From: Chloroflexota bacterium | Lineage (GTDB): Bacteria > Chloroflexota > Anaerolineae > Ardenticatenales > Ardenticatenaceae | NCBI GenBank assembly: GCA_003520455.1 | Contig: DOUV01000222.1 | Span: 1-13,791, forward strand | DNA: 13,791 nt | Direction: 5' to 3' | Shown here: piece by piece, positions 1-13,791 of the stretch | Layout: every line of letters starts with the position of its first letter | How positions within the stretch are numbered: the stretch's first letter is position 1 | Program-made: the position numbers and the translations under genes | The notes under the pieces: model-generated | What the model was told of the DNA's origin: nothing | Database searches by the model: none | The model's input: only the letters and a program-made list of their open reading frames with translations

Positions 1-56
1 GCGCAAGTCGGCTGAAGCCGACTCCAGATGCCGCCGGGCGATTGAAATCGCGGCTG
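1..56. repeat. Pair of short palindromes, REP-like intergenic repeat (cut by window edge)
   Basis: Two compact palindromes lie about 30 bases apart. The first is GTCGGCT-GA-AGCCGAC (7-bp perfect arms, 2-base centre) near positions 7-22. The second is GCGATT-GA-AATCGC (6-bp perfect arms) near 39-52. Short GA-centred palindromes in tandem are typical of REP-like elements scattered between genes. From memory, very similar units occur in many copies in Chloroflexota genomes; I could not search for this. The element probably continues left of the window. It could mark a gene boundary or act as an RNA hairpin. Confidence 0.55.
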
Positions 57-618
57 GGGGCCGCCGGCCGGGCGTACCCGGAGGGGCACGCTGTTTGTCA
101 GATTAGATGGGAAAAGCGCCATGGCGTATTTGGGCTTTTGGCCCTGGAGTTGTTTCCGAGGGCAAGTCACCCACCCAGAGTCGCGCGATTATTTCCTCAT
201 GTCCTCTCAGTGACCTCTCGTTGCGAACAGGCGAGCAGGCGTACGAATGCCTTGTGGCGACAAGAGGATTGGCCCTTTGCTGAATCAGATGGCTATGGAT
301 CGCCTGGTGCCCATCTCCTTGTGGGCGGGAATCACCCCACGGATTCAGACGGAATCGAGGCCTCGGCGGTCCTCTGCATCGCCGCCCTCCCACTCTCGCA
401 CCACCACCAAGTGGCGAAGCGACGCATGAATGCGATGATTGGGCGCACTGCAGACTCCGGGACAGCCGGCGACTCGACCGCGGGGCGACGCCGGCGTACA
501 TGGTGCGCCACCAGGCACTCGCTGGCGCCGCCAGACATGATTCGGACGCCGCTCTCAGCTTTCCCGCGCCGAGCGGCGTTCGTGCGTTTTATGATACGTG
601 CTGCCTGCGACGAAAACA

Positions 619-650
619 GGGGGCCTCCGATCGTGGAGGCCCCTTCTTTT
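619..650 (+). terminator. Strong rho-independent terminator
   Basis: The arms GGGGCCTCC (620-628) and GGAGGCCCC (635-643) form a perfect 9-bp GC-rich stem around the 6-base loop GATCGT. The TTCTTTT tract at 644-650 follows directly. G619 and T644 can add a wobble pair. A GAAAAC run just before the stem gives a weaker T-rich tail on the opposite strand, so it might work in both directions. No gene is recognised immediately upstream on the + strand, so the RNA it ends is unknown. Confidence 0.85.
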
Positions 651-836
651 GCCGGCGAACGTGGGTGCAGGTGGTTCAGGACCCAGGGGCTGGGATACCA
701 TGCCCGAGGGCCTGCCGGGGACAACGAGGATCAGCACCATGAGGGGCCTGGAATAGCGTTGGCAGGCACGATCGTGGCCTCCAAGCAAAAGTGAAGGCAG
801 ACCCCCCGCGGCATTATGGCCCTACCAGGCAAGATC

Positions 837-876
837 TATAGTCGATTGGCTGGCACAGGTACCCCGGAAAGGAGGT
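837..876 (+). promoter_or_regulatory. Possible -10 element and strong Shine-Dalgarno ahead of a small ORF
   Basis: TATAGT at 837-842 matches five of six bases of the sigma70 -10 consensus, but the -35 region (TTATGG at 814-819) is poor. AAAGGAGGT at 868-876 is a near-perfect anti-16S match, nine bases before the ATG at 885. The ribosome site is the convincing part; the promoter call is weak. Confidence 0.3.
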
Positions 877-884
877 AAGCAAGA

Positions 885-1103
885 ATGGTTGGCAAAGCCT
901 TGCGAGCGTGCATAGCCTGGCTGGAAACACCAGTGCTTCCCCTTTATCGTCACGCTTTTCGAGGACAGACAGGAGGGTGGCGCACCCTCCCGGAGGACGA
1001 GAAACAGAGAGTGGGGCAAACGCTGCTTGTGAGCTTTGGCATCCGTATGGCAATCACCATAAGAACTGCTGGAGCCAGGGCCAGAAGAAGTTCAAAGCTT
1101 TGA
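885..1103 (+). CDS. Doubtful small ORF, 72 residues, unknown function
   Basis: I do not recognise this protein. The case for translation is the ribosome-binding site AAAGGAGGT at 868-876, as good as any in the window, nine bases before the ATG. The product would be basic, with a moderately hydrophobic N-terminal part (residues 1-20), a central charged segment (PEDEKQRVGQ) and an Arg/Ser-rich C-terminus. There is no signal peptide or known motif. A perfect hairpin (972-990) sits inside the frame. From about 1074 a different frame looks more protein-like, so this may be the front half of a frameshifted or decayed gene, or a leader ORF. Chance is also possible. Confidence 0.25.
   Translation: MVGKALRACIAWLETPVLPLYRHAFRGQTGGWRTLPEDEKQRVGQTLLVSFGIRMAITIRTAGARARRSSKL
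972..990. other. Perfect 8-bp hairpin, 3-base loop
   Basis: GGAGGGTG (972-979) and CACCCTCC (983-990) are exact reverse complements around GCG. No T-tract follows on either strand, so this is not an intrinsic terminator. It lies inside the doubtful ORF at 885-1103. It could be an RNA structural element, a protein-binding palindrome or part of a degraded repeat. Confidence 0.5.
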
Positions 1104-1258
1104 CGAAACGCGATCTGTCGGCAGAAATAGCCATAGATTTGTTACCAAGTGGTGAATTGTTCGTCGATGTAAGTTGCAAAACATTAAGCGTCAGCGGTGA
1201 CAAGGCGTACGTAGTGAAAAAGTTCACAAAATTGCGTGCGGATTTTATAACCTGAAAA
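1074..1258 (+). pseudogene. Possible coding remnant in AT-richer DNA
   Basis: This frame stays open back to an ATG at 908, but only its last 60 residues or so look protein-like. They alternate hydrophobic and polar residues as beta strands do (IAIDLLPSGELFVDVSC, then KAYVVKKFTK) and stop with TGA just before the regulator promoter. I do not recognise a family. Positions 1141-1200 are about 43 percent G+C, clearly lower than the operon that follows. This could be the tail of a gene whose front lies in the frame starting at 885, joined by a frameshift near 1050-1080, or it may simply be regulatory DNA. Low confidence. Confidence 0.18.
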
Positions 1259-1263
1259 CCCCC

Positions 1264-1292
1264 TTGACAAATCATTCGTACTTTGTTATTGT
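1264..1292 (+). promoter_or_regulatory. Sigma70-type promoter for the regulator and probably the operon
   Basis: A perfect -35 hexamer TTGACA (1264-1269), a 17-base spacer and the -10 hexamer TATTGT (1287-1292, four of six consensus bases) lie in the AT-rich gap before the TetR gene. Transcription would start near 1299. The leader then carries GGAGAGGGG (1322-1330) before the ATG at 1334. This is the best promoter in the window, and no intrinsic terminator follows in the array, so it may drive all downstream genes. Confidence 0.65.
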
Positions 1293-1320
1293 AGCCAAAC
1301 ATACTCAACCAACCAGTTGA
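1267..1320. promoter_or_regulatory. Candidate operator palindromes over the promoter
   Basis: Two imperfect dyads overlap or follow the promoter. ACAAA (1267-1271) and TTTGT (1282-1286) are inverted arms 10 bases apart, filling the space between the -35 and -10 boxes. TCAAC (1305-1309) and GTTGA (1316-1320) are inverted arms 6 bases apart in the early leader. TetR dimers commonly bind such dyads next to their own gene and block RNA polymerase. The arms are only 5 bp, so either could occur by chance. Confidence 0.35.
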
Positions 1321-1333
1321 TGGAGAGGGGTAG

Positions 1334-1933
1334 ATGTCCGAACCAGCTGACCGCAAAACGAACCGCCAAGAGGAGATCATCGAGGCGGCGGTCAAACTCT
1401 TCTCGGATAACGGCTTTCATAATACTGCCGTTCAGACGCTGGCAGACGCCGTTGGTCTCAATAAGGCTACCCTTTACTACCACATCCACAGTAAGGAAGA
1501 GCTCCTCTACCGGATCCACCGGGCGATCATCGACGACTTTCTGGCCGATCTGGACGCAATCTGTGCTCAGCCCAATCTGACGCCTACTGATCGCTTACAC
1601 CGTGCTATCCAAGCCCATATCCGCCACGTGGCGGAACGCCAAGCAGAAGTCAAAATCTTCTTTCGCGAGCGAGATAGCATCGGGGAAGAAATGCGCGTCC
1701 GGATTGCCGAGCGTCGACGCCGGTACCAGGACCTGCTTGTGGGCATCATTGAGGAGGGTATGGCGGCCGGTGAGTTCAGAGACGTAGATGCCAAAGTGGT
1801 GGCGAGCTTCATTGTCGGGATGTCTAATTGGCTCTATCAATGGTATGAGCCGGGTGGCCGGCTTACGGCCGATGAAATCGCCAAGGCTGCCAGCAAGTTT
1901 GCATTGGCTGGCTTACGCGCCACTGATGGTTAA
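1334..1933 (+). CDS. TetR/AcrR-family transcriptional regulator, KstR2-like
   Basis: Predicted dimeric repressor of 199 residues, a normal length for the family. An N-terminal TetR DNA-binding domain spans about residues 10-57, with the helix-turn-helix around 32-52 (TLADAVGLNKATLYYHIHSK), a textbook TetR recognition helix. The C-terminal part (about 75-195) carries FFRERDSI and GMSNWLYQWYEPGGRLTADEIA. I associate that pattern with the KstR2/fatty-acid-type TetR regulators that bind CoA thioesters. The ATG at 1334 is chosen because GGAGAGGGG precedes it. The gene heads the transporter and CoA-enzyme array, 49 bases from the next ORF, so it is probably the pathway-specific repressor, released by the acid or its CoA ester (inference). 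A promoter with dyads lies directly upstream, consistent with autoregulation. Confidence 0.9.
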   Translation: MSEPADRKTNRQEEIIEAAVKLFSDNGFHNTAVQTLADAVGLNKATLYYHIHSKEELLYRIHRAIIDDFLADLDAICAQPNLTPTDRLHRAIQAHIRHVAERQAEVKIFFRERDSIGEEMRVRIAERRRRYQDLLVGIIEEGMAAGEFRDVDAKVVASFIVGMSNWLYQWYEPGGRLTADEIAKAASKFALAGLRATDG

Positions 1934-3172: not shown

Positions 3173-4903
3173 ATGGAGACGAAGTTATCAGTGGCCGACG
3201 AGGTACGCTTAACACAACGATGGTTTCACCGACTCAGGATGCGTTTCATTGCTCCACGGGCGGAGACCCTTGTGTACGGCTTTGTCGTCGTGCTGTTGGC
3301 ATTCCTCGCCCTCTACCCTCTCGCGTTCATCATCAACGAAGTGTTGATTGGTCCCCATAGTGTGGGAACGGTCATCCGCACACTTGTCTCTTCGCCGGCT
3401 TTTCGTGAGGCCTTGGTAAACTCACTCACTGTTGCCACGGTGGTCACCATTGTTTGCGTCCTGGTCGGGGTGCCGGCTGCCTGGTTTGTCACCGTAACGG
3501 ATATGCCGGGACGGGGACTCTTTCGGTCTCTCTTTCTATTGTGTTATATGACGCCTAGTTTCATCTTCGCGACTGCCTACGTGATTCTCCTCGGCCGTGC
3601 AGGCGTTCTCAATAAGTTCCTGGTCAATACCTTTGCTCTGAGCGAACCACCTTTCACCATCTTCAGTATGGGAGGGCTGATTTTGGTCGTTTCGCTCTTC
3701 TGCTTTCCCTTTGTCTTCCTTTCGACCTCAGCAGCACTAGAAGGTCTCGATCCAACGTTTGCCGAGGCGGCTCGGATCTCGGGTGGCTCGCCACTCACTA
3801 CGATCAGGCATGTTACACTTCCGCTTGTCACTCCAGCAATTAAAGCCGGAGCGATCCTATCATTTGTCCAGAGCATCACCCTCTTCGGGGCACCGATTTA
3901 CCTTGGCGTTCCCGCTCGCATTCCAATTCTCACGACGGAAATCTATAAGTACATGGCGACCTACCCATCGCGATTTGATCTAGCGGCGGCCATCTCCGTC
4001 GTCTTGATGGGACTAAGCCTCATCCCTCTCGTCCTCCAAAATTTGACGCGTGGTGAGGCGCGCCGGTTTGTGACCATCGCCGGTCGCAGTGCGGGGACAC
4101 GCTTGCTGCCCCTTGGGAAAGCGCGGCCCCTCGCACTCGCGTTCTGTCTCAGCTTGGCGGCGATTAGCGTCTTCCTCCCGTATGGCATCATCTTGCTCAC
4201 AGCCTTGCGCAAGCACTGGACAGACCCTATCTCTCTGGAGAACCTCACTCTGGAGCACTTCGCGTGGGTGCTGTCAGACCGCCTGACAGTACGCGGCATC
4301 GGCAATAGCTTCCTGCTCGGCGGGGTTTCGGCTGCCATAATCGTCCTGCTGAGTTTGTTTGCCGCTTACGCCGTTTTGCGCGCCCGTGGCGTTATACGAT
4401 TGGCTACCGATTTCCTCTCACTCATACCGCTAGCGATTCCTGGCACTACCCTCGCCGTCGGCCTGGTTCTCGCCTACATCCGGCCACCGCTGCGACTCTA
4501 CGGAACAGTCTGGCTGTTCCTGATTGCGTATGTGACTCATTTCATGCCATTAGCTGTGCGTGTATTGGAAGGCAGCTTGGTGCAACTCGACCCTGTGCTG
4601 GAGGAAGCGGCGCGGATGGCGGGGGCCAGTTGGGTGCGGGGTTTCAGGAGTATCGTCGCTCCCTTGCTGAAGCCAGCTATGGCGGCAGCCTTTATCCTCG
4701 TATTTATCCCAGCGATGAAGGAGTTCACCATTGGCATCCTAATCTACCGGATGCCGTGGGTCACGATGTCCATCGCCCTCTACGAGATCTACACCGCCGG
4801 TCAGTACGAACGTGTTACGGCCCTCGCCACGGTGTTCATGATCCTCGTTCTGGCTGTGTTCGCCCTGGCGCAGCGCTTTCTGCGTCGGCCGCTCGTCGCC
4901 TAG
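3173..4903 (+). CDS. ABC transporter permease, fused double domain (ThiP/FbpB type)
   Basis: Inner-membrane channel of the importer. At 576 residues it contains two complete permease domains in one chain, so one polypeptide can supply both halves of the pore. Each half has about six hydrophobic segments. The first spans about residues 30-290 with the ATPase-coupling EAA loop at 198-216 (EAARISGGSPLTTIRHVTL). The second spans about 320-570 with its EAA loop from 478 (EAARMAGASWVRGFRSIVA). Fused permeases of this kind occur in ferric, thiamine and related importers with type 2 binding proteins. The start is uncertain: the purine run GAGAGGG abuts the ATG at 3173 with no spacing, and an ATG at 3239 (residue 23) is an alternative that keeps all membrane segments. 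The ATPase gene begins 25 bases after the stop. Confidence 0.92.
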   Translation: METKLSVADEVRLTQRWFHRLRMRFIAPRAETLVYGFVVVLLAFLALYPLAFIINEVLIGPHSVGTVIRTLVSSPAFREALVNSLTVATVVTIVCVLVGVPAAWFVTVTDMPGRGLFRSLFLLCYMTPSFIFATAYVILLGRAGVLNKFLVNTFALSEPPFTIFSMGGLILVVSLFCFPFVFLSTSAALEGLDPTFAEAARISGGSPLTTIRHVTLPLVTPAIKAGAILSFVQSITLFGAPIYLGVPARIPILTTEIYKYMATYPSRFDLAAAISVVLMGLSLIPLVLQNLTRGEARRFVTIAGRSAGTRLLPLGKARPLALAFCLSLAAISVFLPYGIILLTALRKHWTDPISLENLTLEHFAWVLSDRLTVRGIGNSFLLGGVSAAIIVLLSLFAAYAVLRARGVIRLATDFLSLIPLAIPGTTLAVGLVLAYIRPPLRLYGTVWLFLIAYVTHFMPLAVRVLEGSLVQLDPVLEEAARMAGASWVRGFRSIVAPLLKPAMAAAFILVFIPAMKEFTIGILIYRMPWVTMSIALYEIYTAGQYERVTALATVFMILVLAVFALAQRFLRRPLVA

Positions 4904-6063: not shown

Positions 6064-6978
6064 GTGACAAAAAACGAGAGGTTGCGCCAGCTCCTCAGCG
6101 CCCCCGAGGCGCTTCAGGCCGTGGGCTGCATTGATCCGTTCACAGCCCGGATAATCCAGGACGTCGGATTCGATTGTGCCTATCTCGGCGGCTATGCCAC
6201 GGGCACTCACTATGCCGTGAGCGAGCCGCTGGTGACGCTCACCGAACAGGTCAGCCACGCCGCAAACATCGCGCGCGTGATCGATGTGCCGCTCATTGTC
6301 GATGCCGGCGCTGGCTTTGGGGATGCGGTCCACACGGCGCGCACGATTCGAGAGTTCGAACGTGCGGGTGTCTCTGGAGTACACATCGAGGACCAGATCT
6401 ATCCGAAAAAGATGCACTACCACACGCTGCCCGCTCCCACGGAGCATGTGATCTCGGTCGAAGAAATGTCCTTCAAGATCAAGGCGGCTGTGAACGCGCG
6501 AAGCGACAAGAACTTCGTGGTGATTGCTCGCACTGATGCGATCGGTGCTTCCAACGGTGGCGTTCAGGAAGCGATCCGGCGCGGCAACCTCTATGCCGAA
6601 GCAGGCGCCGACATTGTTCTCATGTTCCCAATCAACGAGGAGCAGACCCGGCTGCTGCCCCGTGAGGTCCATGCGCCGCTCGCCTACATCTACAGTGAAG
6701 GTACACACCGGCCCCGGTTCAGCCGGCAAGAGCTGACCGACATGGGCTGGAAGCTCATCATCTATGCCTCCACCATCGTCATGACGATTGGCCGTGCGGT
6801 CTGGGATATCTTTACCGAACTGAAGACCACAGGGCGCACCTCCTTCGACCATGACGAGATGTCGAAAATGCGCGAGCGAGTCCAGGCGGTGATCGGTATC
6901 CCCGAGCTGATCGCGCTTGAGAAGGAGACGCGCCCTGAGTATCGCGACGCTCCCTATCTCGCGCCCGACAAAAAGTAA
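6064..6978 (+). CDS. Isocitrate lyase/PEP mutase superfamily enzyme, variant active site
   Basis: A TIM-barrel enzyme of 304 residues from the family of methylisocitrate lyase, PEP mutase, 2,3-dimethylmalate lyase and oxaloacetate hydrolase/decarboxylase. Family landmarks are LGGYATG (41-47), the metal-site strand VDAGAGFGD (79-87), HIEDQ (107-111) and VVIARTDA (152-159). Two key positions differ from classical lyases. The KKCGH loop with the catalytic Cys reads PKKMHYH (114-120), with Met117 in the Cys position. The DxD metal pair reads D80-A-G82, losing the second Asp. I recall an uncharacterised subfamily with this VDAGAGFG...HYH pattern. Lyase chemistry that needs the Cys is therefore unlikely; decarboxylation, hydrolysis or phosphorus-independent C-C chemistry on a 2-oxo or malate-like acid is possible. 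The GTG start at 6064 is supported by AAGGAGGT at 6051-6058. Confidence 0.85.
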   Translation: MTKNERLRQLLSAPEALQAVGCIDPFTARIIQDVGFDCAYLGGYATGTHYAVSEPLVTLTEQVSHAANIARVIDVPLIVDAGAGFGDAVHTARTIREFERAGVSGVHIEDQIYPKKMHYHTLPAPTEHVISVEEMSFKIKAAVNARSDKNFVVIARTDAIGASNGGVQEAIRRGNLYAEAGADIVLMFPINEEQTRLLPREVHAPLAYIYSEGTHRPRFSRQELTDMGWKLIIYASTIVMTIGRAVWDIFTELKTTGRTSFDHDEMSKMRERVQAVIGIPELIALEKETRPEYRDAPYLAPDKK

Positions 6979-7016: not shown

Positions 7017-7043
7017 TCTATGGCACCTCGTGGAGTCGGTCGT

Positions 7044-8234
7044 ATGTCTGAAACTGTAATCGTCGCGGCTGCCCGGACGCCGTTTGGTCGTTTTGGTGGC
7101 ACCCTGAAAGACGTACATAGCACTGACTTGGGTGCTCATGTCATTCAGGAGGTATTGCGCCGGGCCGCCTTTCCCGCGTCGCGGACCGATTTTGTCTGCA
7201 TGGGCCATGTCCAACCCAGCGCCGGGCAGACGCCAACGCGTCAGGCCGTGCTCAAGTCGGGGCTGCCCCAGGAAACGCTCTCTTTGACCCTTGACCGTGC
7301 GTGTTGCTCTGGTCTTACGGCTGTCGGGCTGGCCTTCACCCAAATCCGTGCTGGGGAGTCCCATGCCGCCGTCGCCGGAGGCATGGAGAACATGAGCCGA
7401 ACGCCACTCCTCGTTCACAACGCCCGCTGGGGCACCCGCCTGGGTGTCCTTGAGACTGAAGATCCCAATGTGATGGTCAATCCTTTCCTCAAGACCCCGC
7501 GCGTCATCTACGTGGCAAAGGCCGCACTCGAACACGGCGAGGGGCGCGAGGCGCAGGATCGTTGGGCACTCCTCAGCCAGCAACGCTACGCAGCTGCGGA
7601 ACAGGCCGGAAAGTTTGTGGATGAAGTTGTCCCCATAGTCGTGCCCCAAAAGAAGGGGCCACCCATCCGTTTCAACAGAGATGAGCCACCGCGGCCGGAC
7701 ACGACTTACGACAAGCTGGCTGCCCTTCCCACGGTCTACGGGAGTGAGACTGTCACGGCAGGTAACGCCCCAGGTCTCAATGATGGTGCCGCCGCCTTGC
7801 TCCTGCTCTCAAGTGAAGAGGCGCGCCGTACTGAGAAGAGCGCTCTCGCCTCAATTGTTTCCTATGCTGCGGTCTCCGGCGATCCAGTCTATTCAGTGCG
7901 ACTGCCGGCTGCTGCGATCCAGAAGGCGCTTGATAAAGCGAAGCTCCCGCTGGATGAGATGCACCTCATCGAGATTAACGAGGCCTACGCCGCGATGCCT
8001 CTGGTCAGCACGCGCCTGCTTGCTGACGGTGATGAGCGGCGGCTCGCCGCACTCCGTGACCGGACTAATGTCAATGGCGGCGCAGTTGCCATTGGTCACG
8101 CTATCGGTGCAAGCGGGGCGCGCATCCTCATGACTCTTCTCTATGAACTCCAGCGGCGGGGTGGCGGCTATGGTGTCGCGGCTATCTGTGGAGGCATCGG
8201 GCAGGCCGATGCGATGGTAATCAAGGTAGACTGA
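7044..8234 (+). CDS. Acetyl-CoA acetyltransferase / 3-ketoacyl-CoA thiolase family protein
   Basis: Predicted to cleave a 3-oxoacyl-CoA with CoA to give acetyl-CoA (or propionyl-CoA) and a shortened acyl-CoA, or to run the reverse condensation. The 396-residue length is typical. The nucleophile is Cys87 in DRACCSG, followed by VAGGMENMS (110-118), a NASGINDGAAA-like loop (NAPGLNDGAAA), NEAYA (312-316, usually NEAFA), catalytic His352 in GHAIGASG (usually GHPxGASG) and Cys382 in AICGGIGQADAM. All four catalytic elements are therefore present. The segment that usually reads MGxTAE is changed (VIYVAKAALEHG). I use the ATG at 7044 because MSETVIVAAARTPFG is the standard thiolase start and TGGAG lies eight bases upstream; an ATG at 7020 would only add eight non-conserved residues. 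The acyl chain preference cannot be read from the sequence. Confidence 0.93.
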   Translation: MSETVIVAAARTPFGRFGGTLKDVHSTDLGAHVIQEVLRRAAFPASRTDFVCMGHVQPSAGQTPTRQAVLKSGLPQETLSLTLDRACCSGLTAVGLAFTQIRAGESHAAVAGGMENMSRTPLLVHNARWGTRLGVLETEDPNVMVNPFLKTPRVIYVAKAALEHGEGREAQDRWALLSQQRYAAAEQAGKFVDEVVPIVVPQKKGPPIRFNRDEPPRPDTTYDKLAALPTVYGSETVTAGNAPGLNDGAAALLLLSSEEARRTEKSALASIVSYAAVSGDPVYSVRLPAAAIQKALDKAKLPLDEMHLIEINEAYAAMPLVSTRLLADGDERRLAALRDRTNVNGGAVAIGHAIGASGARILMTLLYELQRRGGGYGVAAICGGIGQADAMVIKVD

Positions 8235-8264
8235 AACCATTAGATAGAAGGAGGACGGCAGGCG

Positions 8265-9971
8265 ATGCAGACGCGTGAGCAAGTTGAGTGGTCCACCTCC
8301 GTGCAGTCCGAAGATGATCCCATCGCTCAGATTGGAGAGGTCAAGGCTCACTGGGAGCAAGAGCATCCGTCGCTGCGGGGACGGCGCCCGGAGTTCTTTA
8401 CAAGTAGTGGGCTTTCCATCAACCGCGTGTATACGCCGCTTGATGTGGCTCAGACCGACTACTTGCGCGATATCGGGTTGCCAGGCTCCTACCCGTTTAC
8501 CCGCGGAATTACCGCGGACGGATACCGCGAAAAACTCTGGCATATCGCTCAATACTCGGGCTTCGGGTCGGCTCGGGATGCCAACGAGCGCTACAAGCTG
8601 CTGCTCGACGCAGGCCAGACGATGCTCATTGTCGCTATGGATCTTCCGACACAGATAGGTTACGACCCGGACGACCCACGGGCACTTGGCGAGGTGGGTC
8701 GGGTGGGCGTTTCGCTCGCCTCTCTGGCAGACTTCGAGGCCCTGTTCGACGGGATTCCCCTGAGTCGCGCCCGAATGTGTACTGTCGCGAACGGTATTGG
8801 CCCGATTGCCCTCGCATGGTTTCTCGCCCTCTGCGAGAAGCAAGGCCTTTCTCCTGACCGGGTGATCGTCAACATCCAGAACGACCCACTCAAGGAGTTT
8901 ACCGGTCGTGGTACCTGGATCTACCCGGTTGAGCATCACATCCGGCTAGCGACGGATGTCCTCGCCTATGCGGCTCGGCATCTGCCCACCTGGGAGCCGC
9001 TGAACGTCTGCGGCACCCACTTGCGCTGGGCCGGCGCCAATGCAGTGCAAGAACTTGGCTTCGCGATTTCCAACGCAATCTGCTACATCGAAAGCACCCT
9101 ACAGAAGGGGCTGAAGATTGATGACTTCGCGCACAAAATCGAGCTACATCTGAATGCCGGCCAAGACCTGTTCGAGGAGGTGGCCAAGTTTCGAGCCGCT
9201 CGCCGTATCTGGGCTCGACTGATGAAGGAGCGCTACGCAGCCAGGGAGCCGCGCTCGATGGCAGCCCGTATCAGTGTCTATACGGCCGGGTATGCGTTGA
9301 CAGCCCAGCAACCACTCAACAATGTGGTGCGAATCGCGATGCAAACCCTGTCTGCCGTTCTTGGCGGCGTCCAGTACATCAACACGTCATCTTATGACGA
9401 GGCCTTGGCGATACCGACCGAAGAGGCCGCTGTCCTCTCAACGCGCACGCAGCAGATTATCGCGTATGAGTGCGGGGTAACCGAAACGGTCGACCCCCTG
9501 GGCGGATCGTACTACGTTGAAAGTCTGTCGAACACGATCGAAGAGGGCGCCTGGAGTTACATCCGCCAGGTCGAGGCTATGGGCGGTGCCACCGCCGCCG
9601 TCGGAAATGGCTATTACGACCGGGAAATGGGGGACGGTGCCTACCAACGCCTACGCCAGGCTGAATCGGGGGAGGCCGTCGTTGTCGGCCTCAACAAGTT
9701 CGCGGTGGACGAGGAGATCCCAGTTCGAATCTTCCGACCGAAACAGGAGGTGCATGCCGAGCAGGTTCACCGCATCCAGCGCCTGCGGGCGGAACGCGAT
9801 AACGCCCGGGTAGAGGCGGCGCTTTCAGCCGTCGAGGACGCAGCGCGCGGCGATCACAACGTCGTGCCCTCAGTGCTGGCTGCCGTCAAGGCCTATGCCA
9901 CGATCGGAGAGATTTGCAACGTCTTCCGCAACGTGTATGGCGAGCATCAAGAGCAGCTCGTACGTTTCTAG
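8265..9971 (+). CDS. Coenzyme B12-dependent acyl-CoA mutase, large subunit (methylmalonyl-CoA mutase family)
   Basis: Predicted to catalyse a 1,2-carbon-skeleton rearrangement of an acyl-CoA by adenosylcobalamin radical chemistry. At 568 residues it contains only the substrate-binding TIM barrel and must pair with a separate B12 subunit, as in isobutyryl- and 2-hydroxyisobutyryl-CoA mutases; the partner is at 11581-12000. Against Propionibacterium MutB (recalled from memory), the key residues are kept: Tyr97 (Tyr89), Gln205 (Gln197), Arg215 (Arg207) and His252 (His244). Tyr plus Arg is the methylmalonyl-type pattern that binds a carboxylate; isobutyryl-type enzymes have Phe and Gln. Many channel residues differ: Arg82 to Lys90, Thr85 to His93, Arg87 to Ala95, Arg283 to Lys291, His328 to Ser337, Gln330 to Tyr339. 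Substrate is therefore unknown; methylmalonyl-, ethylmalonyl- or alkylsuccinyl-CoA-like esters are candidates. AAGGAGG at 8248-8254 supports the start. Confidence 0.9.
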   Translation: MQTREQVEWSTSVQSEDDPIAQIGEVKAHWEQEHPSLRGRRPEFFTSSGLSINRVYTPLDVAQTDYLRDIGLPGSYPFTRGITADGYREKLWHIAQYSGFGSARDANERYKLLLDAGQTMLIVAMDLPTQIGYDPDDPRALGEVGRVGVSLASLADFEALFDGIPLSRARMCTVANGIGPIALAWFLALCEKQGLSPDRVIVNIQNDPLKEFTGRGTWIYPVEHHIRLATDVLAYAARHLPTWEPLNVCGTHLRWAGANAVQELGFAISNAICYIESTLQKGLKIDDFAHKIELHLNAGQDLFEEVAKFRAARRIWARLMKERYAAREPRSMAARISVYTAGYALTAQQPLNNVVRIAMQTLSAVLGGVQYINTSSYDEALAIPTEEAAVLSTRTQQIIAYECGVTETVDPLGGSYYVESLSNTIEEGAWSYIRQVEAMGGATAAVGNGYYDREMGDGAYQRLRQAESGEAVVVGLNKFAVDEEIPVRIFRPKQEVHAEQVHRIQRLRAERDNARVEAALSAVEDAARGDHNVVPSVLAAVKAYATIGEICNVFRNVYGEHQEQLVRF

Positions 9972-10007: not shown

Positions 10008-11564
10008 ATGAATACGAACGTTCTGGTCGACAGGGCCGCCCACCAGTTCCCGTCGAATGTTGCTGTTAAGTGTCATGGCACGTCCTACACTTATGCGGAG
10101 GTCAACGAACGGGCCAACCGGCTTGCGAATGGCTTGCTGGCGCTCGGTTTACAGAAGGGCGACCGAGTCGGCTTGCTCGTTCGGAATTGCGCCGAATATC
10201 TGGAGATAGAGTTTGGTCTGGCGAAGGCTGGGCTTGTTGCGGCCCCAATGAATGTACGGCTGGCGCTCCACGACTTTGGCTATATCAGCAATGATGCGGG
10301 GATCAGCGCCCTAATATTCGACGCTACGTTCGCTGCCACCGTGCGGCAACTCGCGTTGAAACTCGACCGCCCGTGCCATTTGATTTGCCTCGGAGAAGAT
10401 CACGGCAGATTCCTCGAATACGAGAGGTTTCTTTCGACTTGTTCCGGCTCTCATCCTGAGATTCAGGTAGATGAGGACGATCTGCACACCCTCATGTACA
10501 CGTCGGGCACGACCGGCCGGCCGAAAGGAGTCATGCAGACCCACCGAAATCGGACAACTGTCACCTTTAACCTTCTGATGGAGATGGGGCCTCACTCACA
10601 GGCCGATTGTATTCTGCACGTTGCACCGCTTACGCACGGGACCGGTATGTTTCTCCTCCCGTACTTCACTCGAGGCGCTTGCAGCATTGTCCTACAGGAG
10701 TTCACTCCACAGCTCGTATGTGAGACGGTTGAGCGGGAGCGTGTGACTGTTTTCAAGCTGGTCCCCACCATCTTGCTCCGTCTTCTAGCCTTTCCGGAGT
10801 TGCAGCACTATGATCTCAGTAGCCTGCACACCATTATTTACGGTGCGTCCCCAATGCCACCGGAGAAGCTTAAGCAGGCAGTTCGCATCTTTGGGAATGT
10901 CTTCATGCAACTGTACGGTCAGGCCGAAGCCGCAATGAGCATTACGGTGCTGCGTAAGGAGGATCACGTGATCGACGGACAACCCGAGGCTGTGAGACGC
11001 TTAGCCTCGGCGGGCTGTGTCTGGCCGACAGTCGAACTTCGCGTGCGTGACAAGGATGGGGCCGACCTTGGCCCGGGGGAGGTCGGCGAGGTTGCTGTGC
11101 GGGGCGACCATGTCATGAGGGGATACTGGAAGCTACCTGAGGAAACAGCTGAAGTCTTGCGTGATGGTTGGCTATACACACGCGATATGGGCTGGCTCGA
11201 TGGATACGGCTATCTTTACCTGGTTGATCGAAAAAGCGACATGATTATCAGTGGCGGCTTCAATATCTACCCGCGGGAAATCGAGGACGTGTTGCACCAA
11301 CATCCTGCCGTGCAGGATGTAGCAGTCGTGGGTGTGCCTGATGAAGAGTGGGGCGAAGCCGTGAAGGCGCTTGTGGTAGTACACCGCGGTATGCGGGTTT
11401 CCGCCGGGGAACTGGCGGCGTTTTGCAAGGAGCATCTACCCAGTTTTAAGAAACCCAAAACCATCGAGTTCATTGATGCAGTACCAAGAAACGCGTATGG
11501 CAAGCCACTCCGTCGCGTGCTCCGTGAGCGCTACTGGCAGGGGTTTGACCGGCGCGTTCATTAA
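10008..11564 (+). CDS. AMP-forming acyl-CoA synthetase (ligase)
   Basis: ANL-superfamily enzyme of 518 residues that would join a carboxylic acid to CoA at the cost of ATP, through an acyl-adenylate. The phosphate loop is [12 protein letters not shown] (164-175). Further motifs are APLTHGTG (206-213), YGQAEAAM (303-310, with Ala306 where YGxTE usually has Thr), [12 protein letters not shown] with Asp393, [21 protein letters not shown] (hinge/CoA region, about 407-427) and the adenylation Lys499 in NAYGKPLRR. The enzyme is complete. It sits between the two mutase subunit genes, so it probably activates the very acid the mutase rearranges (inference). Ribosome-site match is weak (GAGGA about 14 bases upstream). 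The acid specificity cannot be read from sequence. The B12-subunit gene starts 16 bases after the stop. Confidence 0.93.
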
Positions 11565-11580: not shown

Positions 11581-12000
11581 ATGGATCAGAGACCCGTGCG
11601 AGTGCTTGTGGCGAAGCCAGGCTTGGATGGGCACAGTGTTGGGGCGAAAGTCATCGCCCGGGCTCTGCGCGATGCCGGGATGGAGGTGATTTACACAGGA
11701 CTGCGCCAAACTCCGGAGATGATTGTCGACACGGCCATTGAGGAGGATGTCGATGTGATTGGGCTTAGCATCCTATCCGGGGCACACCTTGAACTCTCCG
11801 CCCGGCTTCTTGAGCTTCTGAAAGCGCACGATGCCGATGATATTTCGGTTGTGCTTGGCGGTATCATTCCTCAAGAAGACATCCCGGCACTGCACCAACT
11901 TGGAGTGGTGGGGGCCTTCGGGCCAGGAACTCCCCTCAGTGCGGCTGTCGACTTCATCTACCAGACCGGATTGCATCATGCTGCGCTTGACGGGCGCTGA
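11581..12000 (+). CDS. Coenzyme B12-binding small subunit of the acyl-CoA mutase
   Basis: A stand-alone cobalamin-binding Rossmann domain of 139 residues, the size of IcmB/HcmB. It carries the base-off/His-on signature D16-G-H18-S-V-G21, where His18 is the lower axial cobalt ligand. It also has the SxL motif at Ser63-Leu65 (GLSILSGAH) and the glycine pair GG (93-94, VLGGIIP), and close family resemblance throughout ([26 protein letters not shown]). With the large subunit at 8265-9971 it should form a heterotetrameric mutase. I place the start at the ATG at 11581, where family similarity begins. The frame is open further upstream inside the synthetase gene, but that extension is out-of-frame read-through of the synthetase and should be discarded. 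Purine-rich AAAAAGGCGAGAG precedes the ATG. Confidence 0.93.
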
Positions 12001-13371: not shown

Positions 13372-13791
13372 GTGTTCTCCCGCGCGCGTTTGCAACTCTT
13401 TTCCTCTTTGCGCCACCACGATTATGGCTATCTCTGGATCGGCGTCCTACTGATGAGCGCTGGCCAGTGGATCCAACAGATCACCCTCGGCTGGCTCCTT
13501 TATGATCTGACCAACTCCCCACTGCTGCTGGGAGCGCTCAATGGACTCCGTTCACTCCCCTTCCTGGTATTTGGTCCCCTTGCCGGCGTGGCTGCCGACC
13601 GCATGGATCGTCGCCAGTTAATGCTCATTACGCAGGCTGTGCTCATGTGCACCGCTTTGGGCATCTGGCCATCGGTAGCGCTGAGGATCGTTCAGACCTC
13701 GCATCTATTTCTGTTTACTCTGAATGGGTGTGGCCCGCGTGTTCGGAGCGTGGAAGGGAGGTTTCGGGCCGATGGGGTGGGGAGGTGGAAG
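13372..13791 (+). CDS. MFS transporter, MFS_3/EntS-like exporter (5' part only)
   Basis: The N-terminal part of an inner-membrane major facilitator exporter, cut by the window end. The translation contains LFSSLRHHDYGYLWIGVL, then WIQQITLGWLLYDLTNSP (first transmembrane segments) and LVFGPLAGVAADRMDRRQLM, the cytoplasmic loop motif GxxaDRxdRRxl between helices 2 and 3. This pattern matches the transmembrane-secretion-effector/enterobactin-exporter-like group, which has 400 or more residues. The start is unclear: the frame opens after a TGA at 13330. GTG 13351, GTG 13372 and TTG 13390 are candidates without a clear ribosome site, while ATG 13453 would remove most of helix 1. From about 13719 the frame stops looking like a transporter, and family-like sequence continues in another frame, suggesting sequencing or assembly error near the end. 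Confidence 0.75.
   Translation, partial: MFSRARLQLFSSLRHHDYGYLWIGVLLMSAGQWIQQITLGWLLYDLTNSPLLLGALNGLRSLPFLVFGPLAGVAADRMDRRQLMLITQAVLMCTALGIWPSVALRIVQTSHLFLFTLNGCGPRVRSVEGRFRADGVGRWK

What the first reader, a model, noticed from the sequence alone, without database searches (positions are those of the whole stretch)
8265..9971. B12 mutase keeps catalytic residues but has a heavily altered substrate/CoA channel
In a nearly gapless alignment to Propionibacterium MutB (recalled), Tyr89, Gln197, Arg207 and His244 are conserved as Tyr97, Gln205, Arg215 and His252. Changed positions include Tyr75-Pro-Thr77-Met78 to T-A-D-G (83-86), Arg82 to Lys, Thr85 to His, Arg87 to Ala, Tyr243 to Thr, Arg283 to Lys, Ser285 to Glu, Phe287 to His, His328 to Ser and Gln330 to Tyr. 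It lacks the isobutyryl signature (Phe/Gln) and the 2-hydroxyisobutyryl signature (Ile with a nearby Asp). That is a radical-competent mutase with a different pocket, so a new substrate is likely.
Basis: partly seen in the sequence, partly recalled or inferred. Interest (0 to 1): 0.75.

Follow-up and report, generated by a model that had tools for sequence, protein, structure and literature searches.

The report
B12 mutase with relined substrate barrel
This is a vitamin-B12 enzyme that rearranges carbon skeletons; it keeps the catalytic residues of the well-known methylmalonyl-CoA mutase but has rebuilt the inside of the barrel that holds the substrate, and it belongs to a large branch for which no characterised member was found, so it probably acts on a compound that the known enzymes do not handle.

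Summary
The finding holds. The 568-aa ORF at 8265-9971 is a coenzyme-B12 mutase large subunit; its small subunit lies at 11581-12000 in the same run of genes. Tyr97, Gln205, Arg215 and His252 (MutB 89, 197, 207, 244) are kept and the listed pocket residues are changed. Some listed positions (75-78, 82, 283, 285) also vary in MCM-type sequences; the telling ones are 85, 87, 243, 247, 287, 328, 330. A tree built without 18 pocket columns puts the protein in a superclade of 100 of 329 sequences (support 99) that excludes the MCM, ICM-type, HCM and IaaG-type members. The AU test rejects joining it to MCM, HCM or IaaG rows. The change is wider than reported: 22 of 101 otherwise conserved positions are replaced throughout the window's clade, 17 of them on barrel strands, among them small Ser/Thr residues that known types keep although their acyl groups differ. 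Arg215 and Tyr97 suggest a carboxylated substrate. Neighbouring genes (importer, thiolase, CoA ligase, acyl-CoA dehydrogenase) suggest breakdown of an imported acid through CoA esters. The substrate is unknown; a free-acid substrate is the boldest reading left open.

The parts
8265..9971 (+). B12-dependent mutase large (TIM-barrel) subunit, 568 aa; catalytic Tyr97, Gln205, Arg215, His252 kept, barrel lining replaced
11581..12000 (+). B12-binding small subunit, 139 aa (ATG start; a longer TTG-started ORF begins at 11473 inside the ligase gene); DGHSVG fits the cobalamin motif DxHxxG (motif recalled)
   Evidence: TIGR00640 157.7 bits (cut-off 57.45), PF02310 93 bits; sequence
10008..11564 (+). 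AMP-forming acyl-CoA ligase, 518 aa; 41-44% identical to the ligases beside the superclade mutases L027 and L070
12012..13175 (+). acyl-CoA dehydrogenase, 387 aa; active-site triplet VEG (catalytic Glu kept), not the GGG of decarboxylating benzylmalonyl-CoA dehydrogenase
   Evidence: motif meaning from PMC8360864 (passages)
7044..8234 (+). thiolase (ATG at 7044; the open frame reaches back to an ATG at 7020); a 51%-identical thiolase lies directly upstream of the superclade mutase in L139
   Evidence: TIGR01930 380.7 bits (cut-off 240.55)
6064..6978 (+). isocitrate lyase / PEP mutase family protein, 304 aa, lacking the catalytic Cys (KKMHYH where 3eoo has KRCGH) and with VDAGAG where 3eoo has VDIDTG
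   Evidence: relative P0190 is listed with a longest contig of 12,728 bases, the same number as mutase relative P0076
1983..3056 (+). ABC importer, solute-binding protein (SBP_bac_6 type)
3173..4903 (+). ABC importer, two-domain permease, 576 aa
4928..6004 (+). ABC importer, ATPase
1334..1933 (+). TetR-family regulator (TetR_C_24; best NCBIfam model is FadR, below its cut-off), first gene of the run

Best explanation
The ORF is the large subunit of an adenosylcobalamin-dependent carbon-skeleton mutase, working with the small B12-binding subunit at 11581-12000. Shown here: family, predicted fold, kept catalytic residues, replaced barrel lining, own clade. Inferred: the usual mechanism (Co-C homolysis, 5'-deoxyadenosyl radical abstracts H from substrate, 1,2-shift, H returned), with Arg215 and Tyr97 holding a carboxylate and His252 the migrating carbonyl. 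The substrate is therefore most likely a carboxylated acyl group (a substituted succinyl / substituted methylmalonyl-type pair) carried as a thioester but held differently from methylmalonyl-CoA, with the more polar His295, Ser337, Tyr339 and Glu293 near the altered group. Inferred pathway: the ABC importer brings in an organic acid; the AMP-forming ligase makes its CoA ester; the mutase rearranges the skeleton so that the acyl-CoA dehydrogenase and thiolase can finish it by beta-oxidation-like steps; the ICL-like protein handles a C-C cleavage or side product. The exact substrate is not identified.
Against: No substrate is shown by any computation here. Loss of the Ser/Thr lining argues against threading CoA as MCM does, so 'CoA ester' rests on neighbouring genes alone, and two of the eight other superclade loci read with flanks (L081, L082) show no ligase, CoA-transferase or thiolase among their listed genes. 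In the window clade the residues said to bind CoA phosphates (82, 321; recalled) are only partly kept (82 K,K,R,R; 321 R,H,R,E). None of the ten window proteins scanned is a MeaB, adenosyltransferase or enoyl-CoA hydratase, so the pathway is incomplete as drawn. The window clade has only four distinct sequences, none with a named organism.
Confidence: 0.55

Rival explanations
1. Free-acid mutase: the barrel axis no longer takes pantetheine, and the enzyme rearranges a free di- or tricarboxylic acid, as glutamate mutase and 2-methyleneglutarate mutase do. The CoA ligase, dehydrogenase and thiolase then act on the product, and the ICL-family protein cleaves the rearranged acid, as dimethylmalate lyase does in nicotinate fermentation (pathway recalled).
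For: Much of the Ser/Thr lining kept by known types is replaced by bulkier residues: summed side-chain volume at 20 inward positions is 2722-2790 in the window clade, 2714 (sd 112, n 100) in the superclade and 2541 (sd 30, n 229) in known types. Position 82 is K/R in 226 of 229 known types but 21 of 100 superclade members; 321 is K/R in 178 of 229 against 30 of 100; a new Arg stands at 164 in 76 of 100. Glutamate mutase holds its free substrate with three Arg and a Glu (PMC10947579, passages). The ICL-like gene stands one gene away from the mutase in the window, and a relative of each is listed with the same longest contig length, 12,728 bases.
Against: The window clade itself has Cys, not Arg, at 164 and keeps K/R at 82. 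CoA-activating genes sit near the mutase in the window, L027, L070, L072, L160 and L161, and the L139 thiolase is next to its mutase. Inward positions were inferred from predicted strands, not measured on coordinates. The IaaG-type protein, a CoA enzyme, has itself lost some lining residues (114, 241, 362, 364).
Confidence: 0.22
2. An aryl- or alkylsuccinyl-CoA mutase of the IaaGH or alkylsuccinate kind, reached independently.
For: IaaGH shows that Tyr89/Arg207 enzymes can take bulky arylsuccinyl substrates (PMC8360864, part 1 of 6 and passages). The IaaG-type protein in L136 is 43% identical to the window's and is changed at three of the same positions, 287, 328 and 330. An acyl-CoA dehydrogenase is in both clusters (37% identical).
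Against: AU test rejects window plus IaaG (p 2.9e-5). The IaaG type keeps 13 of the 20 inward residues of MutB, the window 3 of 20. The window dehydrogenase has VEG, not GGG. None of the ten window proteins scanned is hydantoinase-like or a CoA-transferase.
Confidence: 0.1
3. An ordinary methylmalonyl-CoA or ethylmalonyl-CoA mutase whose pocket has drifted.
For: 38-52% identity to MCM-type sequences and the same catalytic residues.
Against: Trees and AU tests. Human, Propionibacterium and L087 enzymes have the same 20 inward residues and the ECM-type L093 keeps 14 of them. Window-clade replacements are shared down to 52% identity.
Confidence: 0.05
4. A catalytically dead paralogue with a structural or regulatory role.
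For: Some barrel residues that the 229 known-type sequences never change are changed.
Against: All four catalytic residues and the small subunit's DGHSVG motif are intact and the gene sits in an apparent catabolic gene run.
Confidence: 0.04

Closest known systems
Methylmalonyl-CoA mutase (MutB/MMUT)
   Different: 32-34% identical in the structural alignments; of 20 inward barrel residues, which MutB and the human enzyme share in full, 17 are replaced here (only Y89, A116 and Q197 kept); AU rejects one clade
2-Hydroxyisobutyryl-CoA mutase (4r3u)
   Different: 4r3u has Ile89, Asp116, Gln207 and a lining that otherwise differs from MutB only at 239 and 285; AU p 2.7e-28
Benzylmalonyl-CoA / phenylsuccinyl-CoA mutase IaaGH (L136, identified here by its gene cluster)
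   Same: Tyr89/Arg207 pair; acyl-CoA dehydrogenase and CoA ligase in the cluster
   Different: among the 13 scored pocket positions the IaaG type changes only F287N, H328I, Q330G; AU p 2.9e-5
Ethylmalonyl-CoA mutase (L093; assigned by length, a recalled motif and its genome)
   Same: Tyr89/Arg207 pair
   Different: ECM type keeps R87, S114, S164, T166, T195, Y243, R283, S285, F287, Q330; open frame of 679 aa
Isobutyryl-CoA mutase (ICM-type L015 second copy; fused L092; PDB 4xc6)
   Same: same barrel family
   Different: Phe89/Gln207
L027/L070 mutases (Rhodobacteraceae MAG HLUCCA12 and a MAG labelled Bacteroidales; uncharacterised)
   Same: Glu285, His287, Ser243 (window clade Thr/Ser) shared; small subunit and a 41-44% identical ligase alongside
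   Different: TRAP importer and a Thiolase_C_1-type thiolase with ChsH2-like partner instead of ABC importer and classical thiolase
Hexylmalonyl-CoA mutase ActD/MatB (proposed in PMC5719088, passages)
   Same: a mutase proposed to have a substrate new to the family, split subunits
   Different: [quoted passage not shown] its sequence was not obtained here, so no direct comparison

Membership tests
B12-dependent acyl-CoA mutase superfamily (Pfam MM_CoA_mutase) | large-subunit domain over the curated cut-off | tested here: met
   614.4 bits, cut-off 22.1
B12-dependent acyl-CoA mutase superfamily (Pfam MM_CoA_mutase) | cobalamin-binding domain or subunit with DxHxxG | tested here: met
   11581-12000, DGHSVG; TIGR00640 157.7 bits
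B12-dependent acyl-CoA mutase superfamily (Pfam MM_CoA_mutase) | catalytic Tyr/Gln/Arg/His (MutB 89, 197, 207, 244; Tyr and Arg differ in ICM and HCM) | tested here: met
   Y97, Q205, R215, H252
Methylmalonyl-CoA mutase | places with proven MCM | tested here: not met
   AU p 1.5e-5 for window clade plus 13 MCM-type rows, two of them proven; outside in both trees
Methylmalonyl-CoA mutase | T85, R87, Y243, F287, H328, Q330 as in MutB and the human enzyme | tested here: not met
   H, A, T, H, S, Y
Methylmalonyl-CoA mutase | turnover of methylmalonyl-CoA | not testable with these tools
   needs the purified enzyme
Ethylmalonyl-CoA mutase | places with the ECM-type protein | tested here: not met
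   L093 falls beside the MCM rows (97/90), outside the superclade; no AU test was run for it, its branch is long, and its ECM label is mine
Isobutyryl-CoA mutase | Phe89/Gln207 | tested here: not met
   Tyr97/Arg215
2-Hydroxyisobutyryl-CoA mutase | Ile or Val at 89, Asp at 116, Gln at 207, clade with 4r3u | tested here: not met
   Tyr, Ala, Arg; AU p 2.7e-28
Benzylmalonyl-CoA mutase IaaGH | clade with IaaG; iaa gene cluster with GGG dehydrogenase, hydantoinase-like and CoA-transferase genes | tested here: not met
   AU p 2.9e-5; window dehydrogenase VEG; none of the ten window proteins scanned is of those kinds
Glutamate / 2-methyleneglutarate mutase (free-acid B12 mutases) | same fold family by structure | tested here: inconclusive
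   [not shown]
Glutamate / 2-methyleneglutarate mutase (free-acid B12 mutases) | acts on a free acid | not testable with these tools
   needs the purified enzyme

The most novel reading that the evidence does not exclude
A whole superclade of methylmalonyl-CoA-mutase-fold B12 enzymes, the window's among them, has closed or rebuilt the barrel tunnel that carries pantetheine in its known relatives, and rearranges free carboxylic acids (or a differently carried substrate). It would be a glutamate-mutase-like way of working reached on the acyl-CoA-mutase chassis.
Probability: 0.22. Interest if true: 0.85.

Novelty: new variant of a known kind. Interest (0 to 1): 0.62.

Why it matters
Known enzymes of this family differ mainly in a few residues that touch the acyl group, while much of the barrel lining is constant (S164, T166 and T195 in 229 of 229 known-type sequences; R87 in 229 of 229 by the pocket-blind tree). 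A large branch that has replaced this lining while keeping the catalytic residues is a natural experiment on what the barrel is for, and a directly testable source of B12 radical chemistry on new substrates. The gene run also marks a breakdown route for an organic acid that I could not assign. None of the ten literature searches listed a paper that I recognised as describing this branch, but the library holds only openly licensed papers, two searches returned nothing, and most listings were seen only as titles and abstract openings.

Tried and rejected
MCM, HCM and IaaG membership: rejected by AU tests. ECM and ICM: rejected by residues and tree position only. IaaF-like decarboxylating dehydrogenase in the window: rejected, VEG not GGG. 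Results that went against or did not help: ten altered positions are not more conserved than background inside the four-sequence window clade (6 of 10, p 0.24); the order of subgroups inside the superclade is unsettled (window plus P0152 plus L027/L070 at 99/95, with window plus P0152 at 96/70; open; support 96 in the pocket-blind FastTree, which also put L072 there).

Search for close relatives in genomes: the scan of one genome per species kept 80 of 226 confirmed stretches. Read by signature, none of the 80 loci is in the window clade and three (L027, L070, L072) belong to the superclade. The other 146 were not shown. 398 Pseudomonadota genomes (three candidates at most scored per genome, 169 genomes matched) gave 30 loci that were read: only the centre genome G001 itself is superclade; weaker matches were not read. 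400 Chloroflexota genomes gave three matches over a strict threshold, of which one (L130) is superclade; a second query with a stricter threshold found none, which shows nothing. Of 385 genomes of the L072 phylum 192 matched; only the 20 with loci were read, and L140, L141 and L159 are superclade. Plasmid searches with the window and L027 mutases gave 427 matching records each, all under 60% identity; of these I read six regions, in which only the odd Sphingobium pair L081/L082 is superclade.

No whole genome is held for the window, so host, paralogues and the missing MeaB and hydratase could not be looked for. Rfam: no family at gathering score in the window, so no cobalamin riboswitch seen. 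No tRNA or tmRNA. The CoA-contact roles of MutB residues 75, 77, 82, 85, 87, 114, 164, 166, 195, 283, 285, 321 and 362 are recalled from published crystal structures, and no coordinates were available to check them; two papers that might help were not held. In two papers opened for this the matches were reference entries only.

The 100/229 split used for the counts was made by Arg87 (with L072 set by hand on the superclade side); one search shows that it is the same set as the pocket-blind tree's.
Full report
What is there. The window carries an apparent run of ten genes on the + strand: TetR regulator, three ABC-importer genes, an isocitrate lyase/PEP mutase family protein, thiolase, mutase large subunit, AMP-forming CoA ligase, mutase small subunit and acyl-CoA dehydrogenase. 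Gaps are short (11-116 bases by the coordinates) and AGGAGG stands before the solute-binding protein, ICL-like and mutase starts. A partial MFS-like frame runs off the right end (by eye). The mutase ORF is at the stated coordinates and scores far above the curated cut-offs.

Observation. Catalytic Tyr, Gln, Arg and His are kept. Positions 75-78, 82, 283 and 285 vary in MCM-type sequences too and should not be counted as signs of a new substrate; 85, 87, 243, 247, 287, 328 and 330 should.

Placement. A careful tree of 72 mutases and one of 68 with more references, including an IaaG-type protein, put the window protein with P0002, P0004 and P0076 (100/98) inside a superclade (47 rows, 100/98; 40 rows, 100/99) apart from the MCM, ECM-type, ICM-type and HCM rows and, the IaaG-type row. 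AU tests reject window plus IaaG (p 2.9e-5), window plus MCM (p 1.5e-5) and window plus HCM (p 2.7e-28). A FastTree of all 329 sequences with the 18 pocket columns removed gives a superclade of 100 members (91 database proteins including the window's, 9 loci), support 99, so the split is not made by those residues. The ECM-type row (L093) was not in the 329 set; it is and in the lining table.

How IaaG was found. Benzylmalonyl-CoA mutase IaaGH is the known arylsuccinyl-type enzyme (PMC8360864: part 1 of 6, passages). I looked for anaerobic aromatic degraders among the 398 Pseudomonadota genomes with TIGR02261 (2 of 398) and found in one of them, G194, a cluster (L136) with an AMP ligase, a hydantoinase-like gene, an acyl-CoA dehydrogenase with the GGG motif that the paper gives for IaaF, a B12 small subunit, a mutase and a family III CoA-transferase. 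I take this as an iaa cluster; the assignment is mine. Its mutase keeps T85, R87, Y243, R283 and S285 and changes F287N, H328I and Q330G, and in the 20-position lining also S114N, S241C, S362T and H364A. So in a known kind of enzyme for a bulky carboxylated substrate 13 of 20 inward residues stay; in the window 3 of 20 do.

The wider change. With AlphaFold2 strands (21-row alignment, mean pLDDT 84.4) I listed columns invariant in the window clade (four sequences) and at least 95% conserved in the 229 known-type sequences: 101 columns, 22 replaced in the window clade. Of the 101, 22 lie on the eight barrel strands; of the 22 replaced, 17 do (hypergeometric p 6e-11, columns taken as independent). 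At 20 positions taken as inward-facing (alternation fixed by Tyr89, Gln197 and the known pocket residues) MutB reads TRYGSASTTQSSYRSFHQSH, the human enzyme the same, HCM TRIGSDSTTQNSYRAFHQSH, IaaG type TRYGNASTTQSCYRSNIGTA, ECM type LRYGSASTTQNCYRSFGQAQ, and the window HAYMIACVNQNCTKEHSYYN. Summed volume is 2722-2790 in the window clade, 2714 (sd 112) in the superclade (n 100) and 2541 (sd 30) in known types (n 229). Over the superclade 23 of 121 columns conserved in known types are lost; by the strand limits I count 16 of the 23 on barrel strands. S164 becomes Arg in 76 of 100, but Cys in the window clade.

Reading. Lining residues shared by MCM, HCM, ICM-type and, mostly, IaaG- and ECM-type enzymes, whose acyl groups differ, most simply contact what these share, the CoA arm (inference; the specific contacts are recalled, not checked). 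Their loss suggests that the superclade holds its substrate's carrier differently or has none. Arg207/Tyr89 predicts a carboxylate on the substrate: human Arg228 makes a salt bridge with malonyl-CoA (PMC10356863, passage; equated with MutB 207 by recalled numbering), and Gln stands there in all 8 sequences with the ICM or HCM kind of residue at 89.

Neighbourhoods. L027 (Rhodobacteraceae MAG) and L070 carry TRAP-type importer genes (by eye), mutase, small subunit, a Thiolase_C_1-type thiolase with ChsH2-like partner (family-scanned in L027 only), and a ligase 41-44% identical to the window's; the IaaB-type, Shinella and L072 ligases are 27-34% identical. L027 also has an Fe-dependent alcohol dehydrogenase, MeaB, hydratase and dehydrogenase genes. 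L072 has MeaB (by eye), SDR, metallo-beta-lactamase-fold and Thiolase_C_1-type genes and a distant ligase. L160 has a TRAP DctM gene, a CoA-transferase and a LUD protein; L161 looks the same by protein starts only; neither fetched stretch shows a B12 small subunit by tblastn with the window's. L139, holding the superclade mutase L130, has a thiolase 51% identical to the window's directly upstream of the mutase, a small subunit and a distant two-domain permease; its other genes were not annotated. L081 and L082, Sphingobium plasmid loci whose mutases also fall in the superclade, list no ligase, thiolase or CoA-transferase. So a ligase, CoA-transferase or thiolase lies near the mutase in 6 of 8 other superclade loci read with flanks (L070 being close to L027 and L161 to L160). 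In G001, home of L027, an MCM-type (717 aa) and an ECM-type (679 aa) mutase are also present. This favours CoA-level catabolism of imported acids and disfavours, without excluding, a free-acid substrate.

The ICL-like gene. It has Met where 3eoo has the catalytic Cys, and VDAGAG where 3eoo has VDIDTG. Of the 120 listed homologues 119 lack Cys at that place (Ala 77, Val 21, Ile 10, Met 9, others 2) and 118 lack the second Asp, so this belongs to a recurrent group and is not a defect of this gene.

Verdict. A confirmed and non-random observation; interpretation right in direction, incomplete in scope. The enzyme is a new variant of a known kind: a radical mutase whose catalytic set is kept and whose barrel lining is rebuilt, in a superclade without a characterised member that I could find. 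Substrate and carrier remain open.

Noticed in passing
L081 (plasmid of Sphingobium sp. TomTYG46) and L082 (S. herbicidovorans pMSHV), mutase at about 7960-9690: A B12-mutase homologue next to a small subunit and a MeaB/ArgK-type gene that has Val at 89, 197 and 207, Ala at 243 and Gln at 244, i.e. none of the usual catalytic residues. Matches of 41-42% identity to the window mutase are listed on ten further Sphingobium plasmids, not read. Worth its own study.
   Followed up: partly
L083, L085, L101/L137, L102/L138, L103/L135: A separate uncharacterised mutase group (100/100, five sequences) with signature TRYQRAHDRSFGV: Y243A, E247D, H328G, Q330V with the rest of the scored set intact. On the Marinobacter and Diaphorobacter plasmids it sits with an enoyl-CoA hydratase, a small subunit and a CoA-transferase, on the latter also a GTP-binding protein.
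   Followed up: partly
window 6064-6978: ICL/PEP-mutase family protein without the catalytic Cys (KKMHYH), in a recurrent group (119 of 120 listed homologues lack that Cys); near the mutase in the window and probably on a 12,728-base contig elsewhere.
   Followed up: partly
L160, L161: Superclade mutases with no B12 small subunit found in the 18-19 kb fetched around them; the small subunit may lie elsewhere.
   Followed up: no
superclade alignment, MutB position 164: A Ser that is invariant in 229 known-type sequences is Arg in 76 of 100 superclade members, reminiscent of an extra carboxylate-binding Arg; not in the window clade.
   Followed up: no
window 13372-13791: Partial frame running off the right end that looks like the start of an MFS transporter (by eye).
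   Followed up: no
window 1-1330: No gene recognised in the first 1.3 kb although ORFs up to 250-263 aa are open; none was tested against families.
   Followed up: no
L070: Locus of a MAG labelled Bacteroidales whose mutase, importer and ligase gene order matches the Rhodobacteraceae MAG L027 closely; possibly a mis-binned contig.
   Followed up: no
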